Shown here: one piece after another, positions 8,474 to 17,810 of the stretch
How the letters are laid out: each line of letters opens with the position of its first letter
Numbering within the stretch: the first letter of the stretch is position 1
IMG/VR virus record: IMGVR_UViG_3300030616_000078
Location: 1 to 25,536 of that record
Origin: a virus
Reading direction: 5' to 3' (one strand)
Length of the DNA stretch: 25,536 bases
Made by a program: the position numbers and the translations under genes
The notes under the pieces: generated by a model
What the model saw: only the letters and a program-made list of their open reading frames with translations
The model's database searches: none
What the model was told of the DNA's origin: nothing

Positions 8474-8911
8474 TTAGGCATAAACATTTTCAATACCGAC
8501 ATCTTTCACAATATACATATGTACAGGTGAAGATGAAAATGCGTTTACACTATCTTCTGTCAAAAGTCTAGTGCCATCTCCAGACCTTGCCCAGAAATAT
8601 CCACGCAGATATTGCTTTACATCGTTACCAATCGGAAGTTTGATTTCTTTTCCTGCTGCTAATGCTGCTGCATTATAAGTGCCACTTGCAACGAGAGTTG
8701 TGTATTCATTGAAGTCTTCTGATTCAGAAGTCTGCAATTCAAACTGTCCATATGGCGCACCTACTGACGCTGCAAACGCTGTTAAGACATGGACATATAG
8801 CCAAGCTCCTCTGCAAGATTCACCGACAGCAACAGTATCAATTATACTCGGTGATGCTGCTGGTAAGGTATTATCAATAATACCTAAGTCTAGTAAGGAA
8901 TCAAGAAACAT
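8474..8911 (-). CDS. Bbp16-like capsid cement protein
   Basis: The 145-residue protein begins MFLDSLLDLGIIDNTLPAAS, close to the MYLDxLLxLxxxQxxT start of Bordetella phage BPP-1 Bbp16 and relatives. It continues with the pattern GAWLYVHVLTAF, QFELQTSESEDFNEYTTLVA, LAAGKEIKLPIG and KQYLRGYFWARSG, typical of these beta-rich decoration proteins that lock capsomers together on the head. It directly follows the major capsid gene, as in BPP-1-like phages. An AAGGAGAT ribosome binding site lies upstream. Confidence rests on motif recognition and gene order. Confidence 0.8.
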   Translation of the reverse strand: MFLDSLLDLGIIDNTLPAASPSIIDTVAVGESCRGAWLYVHVLTAFAASVGAPYGQFELQTSESEDFNEYTTLVASGTYNAAALAAGKEIKLPIGNDVKQYLRGYFWARSGDGTRLLTEDSVNAFSSSPVHMYIVKDVGIENVYA

Positions 8912-16923: not shown

Positions 16924-16951
16924 ATCATACACACAGATACAAGAAATGCAA
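16924..16951 (-). promoter_or_regulatory. Leftward sigma70-type promoter
   Basis: Read on the minus strand, TTGCAT and TATGAT are separated by 16 bases. The -10 is followed by AGTAA, giving TATGATAGTAA. It points toward the packaging and virion operon, whose first ATG lies about 40 bases downstream. The 11 bases from the -10 are identical to those of the rightward promoter at 17048-17058. The stretch between the two promoters (about 16952-17025) is very A/T-rich with poly-T runs and holds no gene. Confidence 0.65.
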
Positions 16952-17025
16952 GATTTTTGTTTTATTTATTTTTTTTGATGCAGATTATTTTTTTAGATAG
17001 ACGACATTCACATAAAAAATATTTA

Positions 17026-17053
17026 TTGACTTTCACAATGAAAAGACTATGAT
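17026..17053 (+). promoter_or_regulatory. Rightward sigma70-type early promoter
   Basis: TTGACT (17026-17031) and TATGAT (17048-17053) are spaced by 16 bases, followed by AGTAA. It faces the replication and modification operon starting at 17196. An A/T-rich upstream region could serve as an UP element. The transcript would begin near 17060, giving a leader of roughly 135 bases before the first large gene. Confidence 0.7.
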
Positions 17054-17064
17054 AGTAAATACAA

Positions 17065-17181
17065 ATCGGAGAGCCTATGAACTTGAAACAAAAAATATTT
17101 TTAAAGATAAAATCAAAGCTATGCAGGGGTCCGTTCTCCGATAACCTCAGACACGCTAAAGTGTCGCCTCTGCATAGCTTT
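17065..17181 (+). ncRNA. Structured 5' leader RNA with possible pseudoknot
   Basis: Three pairings are visible. AAAGCTATGCAG (17115-17126) pairs perfectly with CTGCATAGCTTT (17170-17181) and can extend by four more pairs, two of them wobbles, to about 16. GACAC/GTGTC (17150-17154 and 17161-17165) forms a hairpin that would stack on that stem. ATCGGAGA (17065-17072) is complementary to TCTCCGAT (17135-17142) in the unpaired part, which makes a pseudoknot. ATCGGAGA contains the ribosome binding site of a 36-codon leader frame. The long stem ends in TTTT just before the AGGAGG of the first large gene. This looks like a cis-regulatory leader, possibly an attenuator. It matches no riboswitch consensus I can recall. 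Confidence 0.55.
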
Positions 17182-17187
17182 TCCTAG
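17077..17187 (+). CDS. Possible leader peptide, 36 residues
   Basis: ATG at 17077 has a CGGAGAG ribosome binding site five bases upstream. The frame encodes MNLKQKIFLKIKSKLCRGPF followed by SDNLRHAKVSPLHSFS. Its TAG overlaps the AGGAGG that serves the replication gene at 17196. Translation would run through the long stem of the leader RNA, so ribosome movement could control folding and expression downstream. The peptide is basic and has no obvious run of one regulatory amino acid. It may instead be a chance frame within a structural RNA. Confidence 0.4.
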   Translation: MNLKQKIFLKIKSKLCRGPFSDNLRHAKVSPLHSFS

Positions 17188-17195
17188 GAGGACTT

Positions 17196-17810
17196 ATGGA
17201 ATATATCCACATCAAAAACCTTGAGAAGTATAACCCTGGATACAAAGACCGTGATTTGATTTGGGGCAAAATCTATTTCACGATGGTTAGTGGCGATCCT
17301 GATTGTGCGATGATTGAAGAAGAAATAGATTGGTCACGGCTTGTAAAATTCATCCTCATTGAGCTACAGACTAAAAAACCCATCCCAATAAACCCCATTT
17401 TCCTAGGGAAGATTGGATTCAACTTGAAGAAAAGACCTATCCACTTGACACTAAATGCGTTACATAAGTTTGTTGAGGTCTGTAACACCAGCGTAACAGA
17501 ATGTAACGATATGTTACCTAGAGAAGAGAAGAGAAGAGAAGATAAGAGTATAAAGAGAGGCTCTACAAATGGGTTTGTAGCACCAACAGAGGATGAGGTA
17601 CGCACATACTGTTCGGAACGAAACAACGACATCAATCCAACCACCTTTATAGACTTTTACGCCTCTAAAGGCTGGATGGTAGGTTCAAACAAGATGAAGG
17701 ACTGGAAGGCTGCCATCAGGTTATGGGAGCAACGAGATAAAGATAACCCTAATAAATCAGGAGGACTTACCAATGCCGACAGAAGAAGCCTTGGAATGGC
17801 TGAAAAATAA
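17196..17810 (+). CDS. Replisome organizer-like phage replication protein
   Basis: The 204-residue protein starts MEYIHIKNLEKYNPGYKDRD. It has an N-terminal domain (about 1-95) resembling the winged-helix start of phage replication organizers. A charged linker follows (REEKRREDKS), then a C-terminal motif at about residues 128-177 with EDEVRTYCSERNNDINPTTF and FYASKGWMVGSNKMKDWKAA. The F-x-D-F-Y-x-S-K-G-W-x-V-G-x-x-K-M-K-D-W-K-A-A pattern is common at the end of phage initiators. It would bind the phage origin and help load the helicase. AGGAGGACTT is the ribosome binding site. It is the first substantial gene of the rightward operon. Confidence 0.75.
   Translation: MEYIHIKNLEKYNPGYKDRDLIWGKIYFTMVSGDPDCAMIEEEIDWSRLVKFILIELQTKKPIPINPIFLGKIGFNLKKRPIHLTLNALHKFVEVCNTSVTECNDMLPREEKRREDKSIKRGSTNGFVAPTEDEVRTYCSERNNDINPTTFIDFYASKGWMVGSNKMKDWKAAIRLWEQRDKDNPNKSGGLTNADRRSLGMAEK
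17481..17549. other. Candidate replication origin inside the replication gene
   Basis: Three GTAAC boxes at 17482, 17493 and 17503 and an inverted GTTAC at 17513 are spaced 10-11 bp apart, one helical turn. They are followed by four GAGAA pentamers (17521-17540) and a purine-rich, A/T-rich tail. The block sits in the part of the gene encoding the linker between the two protein domains. Lambda-type phages also place origin iterons and an easily melted tract inside the initiator gene. The function is inferred. Confidence 0.4.

What the first reader, a model, noticed from the sequence alone, without database searches (positions are those of the whole stretch)
17054..17195. Pseudoknotted leader RNA with an embedded leader peptide ahead of the replication genes
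Seen: a perfect 12-bp stem extendable to about 16, a stacked 5-bp hairpin, and an 8-bp pairing that crosses the stem and covers the ribosome binding site of a 36-codon frame. The stop of that frame touches the AGGAGG of the next gene, and the long stem is followed by TTTT. Inferred: a cis-regulatory switch in which folding, leader translation and downstream translation or termination compete. It matches no riboswitch class I can recall, so it could be a new phage leader RNA.
Basis: partly seen in the sequence, partly recalled or inferred. Interest (0 to 1): 0.75.

Follow-up and report, generated by a model that had tools for sequence, protein, structure and literature searches.

The report
P4-like RNA switch before phage replication
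The start of a phage's replication-gene message folds into a looped RNA in which the very 5' end pairs with the loop of a long hairpin, the same plan as the RNA control region of phage P4, and unrelated-looking versions of this switch sit, sometimes several per genome, behind strong promoters of other uncultured phages.

Summary
A sigma-70 promoter (17026-17053) starts an RNA whose 5' end (S1, 17065-17072, containing the leader peptide's ribosome site) is complementary to the loop (S1', 17135-17142) of a 16-bp hairpin (S2, 17115-17130 / 17166-17181). A 36-codon leader frame ends in the next gene's AGGAGG. The same order promoter-S1-S2-S1'-S2' occurs in eight other IMG/VR phages: at the matching place in the closest relative that carries the region, four times in one genome and three in another. 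S1 and S2 differ in sequence yet always pair (promoter >=11/12, score >=43: 8 sites against 0.000 per shuffled set; 0 in 949 kb of unrelated phage DNA). Two phages with near-identical flanks carry completely different leaders of the same plan, exchanged exactly between promoter and next gene. The plan and helix sizes match the phage P4 immunity leader (seqA / CI stem / seqB), which I located in P4, but Rfam's C4 and isrK models do not match the window. Most likely it is a P4-type RNA attenuator: S1' pairing with S1, in cis or in trans, shuts leader translation and lets S2 stop transcription of the replication operon. Trans action and immunity are inferred. New variant of a known kind.

The parts
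17026..17053 (+). sigma-70 promoter TTGACT-16-TATGAT, start site ~17060
   Evidence: 10/12; sister elements found by the promoter scan have S1 0-10 nt after such a start site
17065..17072 (+). S1 (seqA-like): ATCGGAGA at the 5' end of the RNA, contains the Shine-Dalgarno of the leader frame; extends to 17074 with one G-U pair
17077..17187 (+). leader ORF, 36 codons, MNLKQKIFLKIKSKLCRGPFSDNLRHAKVSPLHSFS, stop overlaps the next Shine-Dalgarno
   Evidence: 13 of 14 leaders have an early ATG whose frame reaches S2, expected 5.9, P=3e-5
17115..17130 (+). S2 5' arm (CI-stem-like)
17135..17142 (+). S1' (seqB-like) TCTCCGAT in the loop of S2, complementary to S1 (17133-17142 with the G-U extension)
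17150..17165 (+). H3, small hairpin GACAC-GCTAAA-GTGTC between S1' and S2'; an equivalent hairpin lies at the same place in G003 and G413
17166..17181 (+). S2 3' arm
17179..17182 (+). short T run at the end of S2 (weak terminator tail here, strong in several sister elements)
17186..17191 (+). AGGAGG Shine-Dalgarno of the replication gene, overlapping the leader stop
17196..17810 (+). first gene of the operon: replication-type protein (204 aa, phrog_28809); relatives annotated replication initiation protein / putative replication protein / DnaD-like helicase loader

Best explanation
It is an RNA control module at the head of the replication operon that works like the phage P4 immunity leader. 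Shown: a promoter; S1 at the RNA's 5' end holding the leader peptide's start region; then a long hairpin S2 whose loop exposes S1', the complement of S1; then the Shine-Dalgarno of the replication gene. Inferred: when a ribosome starts the leader peptide promptly, S1 and S2 are occupied, the hairpin cannot form and RNA polymerase runs on; leader translation ends on the next Shine-Dalgarno and couples to the replication gene. When S1' pairs with S1, within the same RNA or from an accumulated short RNA made by earlier rounds (the CI/C4-like part S2-S1'-S2'), leader initiation is blocked, S2 folds and transcription ends early. Because S1' pairs best with its own S1, the module would give a phage its own specificity, as CI and c4 RNAs do in immunity.
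For: Same order promoter-S1-S2-S1'-S2' in G001 (four copies, the fourth without a recognised promoter), G020 (three), G022, G023, G003, G011, G018, G413, G025. Enrichment: 8 against 0.000 per shuffled set at promoter >=11/12 and score >=43; 0 in 949 kb of unrelated phage contigs; 0 of 120 generic promoter+ATG sites. Syntenic in G003, the top hit by terminase, with compensatory changes. G011 and G413: 40-49 of 50 positions identical per 50-column window up to the promoter and 44-50 of 50 after the leader; leader itself not alignable, but both fold alike, i.e. exchange of a specificity cassette. Own S1:S1' is stronger than every cross pairing, also within a genome. P4 sequence: seqA TTCACAGG 8651-8644 x seqB CCTGTGAA 8463-8456, CI stem 17 bp 8502-8486 / 8441-8425, seqC at the next Shine-Dalgarno; a 46-codon frame starts after seqA and stops in the stem. 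PMC4825925 states that P4 CI RNA pairs with seqA and seqC and ends transcription of the replication genes. G011/G413 leaders precede a D5_N primase-type gene. In G022 and G023 the loop also matches the downstream Shine-Dalgarno region as seqC does (p 0.03 and 0.015).
Against: No match to Rfam C4 or isrK even at E 10. No convincing seqC in the window (p=0.16) or in most sister elements. Weak T-run after S2 in the window. An integrase was found only in G022 among ten element phages and no serine resolvase/recombinase in any, so classical lysogenic immunity is unproven; most records are fragments. Several copies per genome fits attenuators at several operons better than one immunity locus.
Confidence: 0.55

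Rival explanations
1. Purely cis, translation-gated transcription attenuator: the 5' end senses whether a ribosome starts on the nascent RNA. Prompt initiation prevents S1:S1' and S2 and lets transcription run on; failure locks both helices and ends it. No RNA acts in trans.
For: Leader frame reaching S2 in 13 of 14 elements, P=3e-5; ATG 5-10 nt after the -10 box in 8 of 14, P=1e-5; stop often overlaps the next start or Shine-Dalgarno; several copies per genome at strong promoters; few integrases.
Against: Does not explain why two near-identical phages carry fully different S1/S2 sequences exchanged exactly at the leader, nor the mutual orthogonality of S1/S1' pairs, nor the seqC-like matches in G022 and G023.
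Confidence: 0.27
2. A phage or host protein binds the pseudoknot (autogenous control by the replication protein, or an antitermination factor).
For: Pseudoknotted leaders bound by proteins are known for T4 gene 32 and several ribosomal proteins (own knowledge).
Against: S1, S2 and loops share no conserved sequence beyond purine-rich Shine-Dalgarno cores; the downstream genes differ (replication protein, D5 primase-type, endonuclease-like, unknown), and no gene is common to all element phages (fragments).
Confidence: 0.1
3. Antisense-RNA replication control as in ColIb-P9/IncB repYZ or pIP501, with a counter-transcript from the opposite strand.
For: Leader peptide, pseudoknot and coupled replication gene recall repYZ (own knowledge); weak minus-strand promoter-like site TTCTCA-16-TATATT at 17227-17200.
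Against: That site is 9/12 and the region holds no more promoter-like sites than shuffles (4 against 4.2); sister elements also precede genes that are not replication genes.
Confidence: 0.05
4. Chance: an ordinary terminator-like hairpin and an unrelated 8-bp match.
For: A single 8-bp crossing match near a hairpin is common.
Against: Recurrence at promoters of related phages against 0 in shuffles and 0 in control contigs at the same threshold; compensatory changes.
Confidence: 0.03

Closest known systems
Phage P4 immunity leader (seqA / CI RNA with seqB / seqC), Rfam isrK RF01394 + C4 RF01695 in P4
   Same: Promoter at the head of a replication operon; 5' complement (8 bp in both) to the loop of a long stem (17 bp in P4, 16 in the window); early leader frame entering the stem; in G003, G011, G413 and G018 also a terminator-like hairpin between S1 and S2 as in P4; in G022 and G023 a second complement at the next Shine-Dalgarno.
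   Different: No sequence or covariance-model match to C4 or isrK; shorter (117 nt against 227 nt from S1 to the end of S2'); S2 itself is followed by a T-run in most elements; up to four copies per genome; S1 lies at or beside the start site; no clear seqC in the window.
P1/P7 c4 antisense RNA (Rfam C4)
   Same: Loop carries a sequence complementary to a ribosome-binding site and sits in the same transcript as its target (PMC12197685, for c4 action and P1/P7 heteroimmunity; same-transcript arrangement is own knowledge).
   Different: In c4 the target lies downstream of the RNA (own knowledge), here S1 is upstream; regulated gene is a replication gene, not an antirepressor; no Rfam match.
Gifsy-1 IsrK / isrK-orf45-anrP leader
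   Same: Short terminated leader RNA plus read-through mRNA from one promoter with a small coupled ORF (PMC4825925).
   Different: IsrK is reported to be activating; no sequence match to RF01394.
Translation-dependent attenuators (trp, pyrBI, ermK type)
   Same: Leader peptide read across the terminator stem (own knowledge of these systems).
   Different: No run of regulatory codons; the 5' start region itself pairs into the terminator loop, and coexistence is a pseudoknot rather than nested alternatives.
ColIb-P9/IncB repYZ leader
   Same: Leader peptide, pseudoknot, coupled replication gene (own knowledge of repYZ).
   Different: No supported counter-transcript promoter; the pseudoknot covers the leader's start site, not the replication gene's.

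Membership tests
Rfam C4 (RF01695) | covariance-model match | tested here: not met
   No hit at E<=10 in 16950-17320; the same library finds C4 in P4 at 74.9 bits
Rfam isrK (RF01394) | covariance-model match | tested here: not met
   No hit; P4 control 60.8 bits
P4-type immunity leader (architecture) | 5' leader segment complementary to the loop of a long stem further down the same RNA (seqA/seqB) | tested here: met
   17065-17072 x 17135-17142 in the loop of a 16-bp stem; P4 8 bp and 17 bp
P4-type immunity leader (architecture) | promoter directly upstream and replication gene(s) downstream | tested here: met
   promoter 17026-17053; gene 17196-17810 related to proteins annotated as replication proteins
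P4-type immunity leader (architecture) | second target seqC downstream near the next Shine-Dalgarno | tested here: inconclusive
   window p=0.16; G022 p=0.03; G023 p=0.015
P4-type immunity leader (architecture) | premature transcription termination in the leader | not testable with these tools
   weak T-run in the window, strong in several sister elements; needs RNA data
P4-type immunity leader (architecture) | processed small RNA acting in trans, giving immunity | not testable with these tools
   cassette exchange and orthogonal S1/S1' are indirect support only
ligand riboswitch | match to a known class or conserved ligand pocket | tested here: not met
   no Rfam hit; sequence not conserved between elements
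plasmid-type counter-transcript control | antisense promoter over the leader | tested here: inconclusive
   one 9/12 site, no excess over shuffles

The most novel reading that the evidence does not exclude
Uncultured phages carry a previously undescribed class of exchangeable, mutually orthogonal RNA cassettes behind promoters of several operons, each a self-targeting P4-like pseudoknot attenuator that gates transcription by leader translation and confers type-specific RNA immunity or superinfection exclusion, up to four per genome.
Probability: 0.35. Interest if true: 0.8.

Novelty: new variant of a known kind. Interest (0 to 1): 0.63.

Why it matters
RNA-based immunity by early termination is known, to my knowledge, from very few phages (P4, and c4 in P1/P7). 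A recurring, sequence-diverse version with several copies per genome and cassette exchange between near-identical phages would make it a general phage strategy that sequence-based RNA searches miss, and would offer a ready set of orthogonal RNA attenuators.

Tried and rejected
Rfam on the window, at E<=10 on the leader and on sister loci: no C4/isrK in them. DNA pattern of part of the exact leader in IMG/VR: none. Named phages: no relative of the N-terminal domain by tblastn with the window or L002 query. Generic promoter + leaderless ATG sites in IMG/VR as a way to find more elements: 0 of 120; kept as negative control. Promoter-free scan gave many probable chance hits and is used only for the fourth G001 copy and the G025 element. 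L016 fits the topology but lacks a T-run and is not counted. Origin of replication / DNA-level inverted repeats: rejected because elements also precede endonuclease-like and unknown genes. Hypothesis of one shared trans-acting protein: no gene common to all element phages. Host search in the phylum of the MAG that holds two relatives gave nothing beyond that MAG. No paper on such phage leaders found; the original P4 target-site paper is not held.

Full report
OBSERVATION. The described structure is present. S1 ATCGGAGA 17065-17072 pairs with S1' TCTCCGAT 17135-17142 inside the loop of S2 (17115-17130 x 17166-17181; 12 Watson-Crick pairs plus four more, two of them G-U). A small hairpin GACAC-GCTAAA-GTGTC lies at 17150-17165. 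The leader ORF is 17077-17187 and its TAG overlaps AGGAGG 17186-17191. A promoter TTGACT-16-TATGAT (17026-17053) places the RNA start near 17060, so S1 is the 5' end of the transcript. S2 is the strongest long-loop hairpin of the whole window. MFE z-score is -2.5. Rfam has no match.

CONTEXT. The window is a phage fragment with a late operon on the minus strand (terminase phrog_38, connector PF12236, major head protein) and an early operon on the plus strand that begins with this leader. The first gene (phrog_28809, unknown function) is related to proteins annotated as replication initiation protein, putative replication protein and DnaD-like helicase loader.

RELATIVES. Scans with the N-terminal domain found 15 homologues of the gene outside the window: 13 virus contigs, including L002/L077, and two contigs of one Omnitrophota MAG. 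In those where the gene follows a promoter directly (G001a, G020a, G023) the leader has the same plan in other letters. In G022 the element lies 2.8 kb upstream at the operon start. After fetching the contigs a descriptor (promoter, S1 at the start site, S2 with a T-run, order S1<S2<S1'<S2') found the window, three sites in G020 (contig positions ~28866, 29760, 37341, minus strand), three in G001 (1413, 7207, 7799), G022 (4839) and G023 (13121). At promoter >=11/12 and score >=43 there were 8 sites against 0.000 per shuffled set, and at promoter >=10/12 nine against 0.067 (60 dinucleotide-preserving shuffles). In 949 kb of unrelated IMG/VR contigs the same thresholds gave 0 and 2, and 0 of 120 generic promoter+ATG sites had it. 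G003, the top terminase hit (66% identity in its best segment), has it at the syntenic place. Further elements: G011 and G018 (G018 by hand from the homology to G011), G413, G025 and a fourth copy in G001 without a recognised promoter. G003, G011, G018, G413, G025 and the fourth G001 copy are not part of the shuffle statistics.

COVARIATION. Window against G003: S1 ATCGGAGAGC/GTTCTCCGAT becomes CTTGGAGAGT/GCTCTCCAAG, with two double compensations and a kept Shine-Dalgarno core. G001a and G001c share the leader start M[VI][KQ]Y..YSN, but S1 and S1' differ together. G011 and G413 share the promoter and a 98% identical downstream protein; the leader between them does not align, and both fold to S1 (10 bp), a terminator-like hairpin, S2, S1', a further segment with a small hairpin, S2', T-run. 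Because most pairs of elements cannot be aligned by sequence, no R-scape-type test was possible; the argument is recurrence of the plan, not column statistics.

LEADER FRAME. 13 of 14 leaders have an early ATG whose frame reaches S2 (within 25 nt of it), against 5.9 expected, P=3e-5. In 8 of 14 the ATG lies 5-10 nt after the -10 box (1.4 expected, P=1e-5), so these leaders begin practically at the start codon; in the window, G003, G020a, G020b and G022 S1 holds the Shine-Dalgarno instead. The elements were chosen for S1/S2, not for the frame.

MECHANISM. Phage P4 (NC_001609) was read as a yardstick: minus strand, promoter-like TTGCCT-18-TATAGT with start near 8692, seqA TTCACAGG 8651-8644, CI stem 8502-8486 / 8441-8425, seqB CCTGTGAA 8463-8456 in its loop, seqC TTCACAGGA 8384-8376 at the next Shine-Dalgarno, and a 46-codon frame from after seqA into the stem. 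Rfam calls these parts isrK and C4. The assignment of the names seqA, seqB and seqC to these stretches is mine, from position and complementarity. The published account (PMC4825925) is that CI RNA pairs with seqA and seqC and stops transcription of the replication genes. The window leader has the seqA/stem/seqB part of that plan with nearly the same helix sizes. I therefore propose a P4-type attenuator: S1' on S1, in cis or from accumulated short RNA, blocks leader initiation and lets S2 end the transcript; early leader translation keeps both helices open. Shown: anatomy, recurrence, co-variation, cassette exchange, orthogonality of S1/S1' by computed duplex energy. Inferred: termination, trans action, immunity.

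LIMITS. The T-run after S2 is weak in the window. A seqC is significant only in G022 and G023, nominally and without correction for 15 tests. Integrase was found only in G022, and no serine resolvase/recombinase in ten element phages; most records are fragments. Hosts are unknown. Thresholds of the descriptor were set after seeing the first examples by eye, so the shuffles and the 949-kb control set, not the raw counts, carry the claim.

Noticed in passing
L002:4370-4860 (G001 between two leader elements): Two stretches of about 100-200 nt each bounded by GGTCGGC ... GCCGACCACCTTTTTAT, tRNA-acceptor-like ends with a T-run; not found by ARAGORN or Rfam; the first folds at z=-1.8.
   Followed up: partly
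window:1495-5066 (-): Two adjacent tail-type genes share a C-terminal domain (GGYIG.DEDNL.EAFTQ...FYRQ.DPLP.TIGAI.PEV.IGG); the second has a long SPSV/SPSS repeat.
   Followed up: no
L099:16889-16980 (G021): Strong S1-S2-S1'-S2' fold with T-run at the start of a secreted-protein-like gene but without a recognised promoter.
   Followed up: partly
L104:2990-3180, minus strand (G024): Terminator hairpin GCGCGGGGG/CCCCCGCGC whose loop CCCTCCTCCC is complementary to the next Shine-Dalgarno GGAGGG: loop-to-SD pairing without an upstream S1.
   Followed up: no
L081 and L082: Two copies of the replication-gene family on different contigs of one Omnitrophota MAG; possible host hint or binning artefact. 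383 other genomes of the phylum had none.
   Followed up: partly
L016:4685-4820: Leader-like S1-S2-S1'-S2' with a 28-bp near-perfect stem but no T-run, ahead of a small gene and a distant relative of the replication gene.
   Followed up: partly
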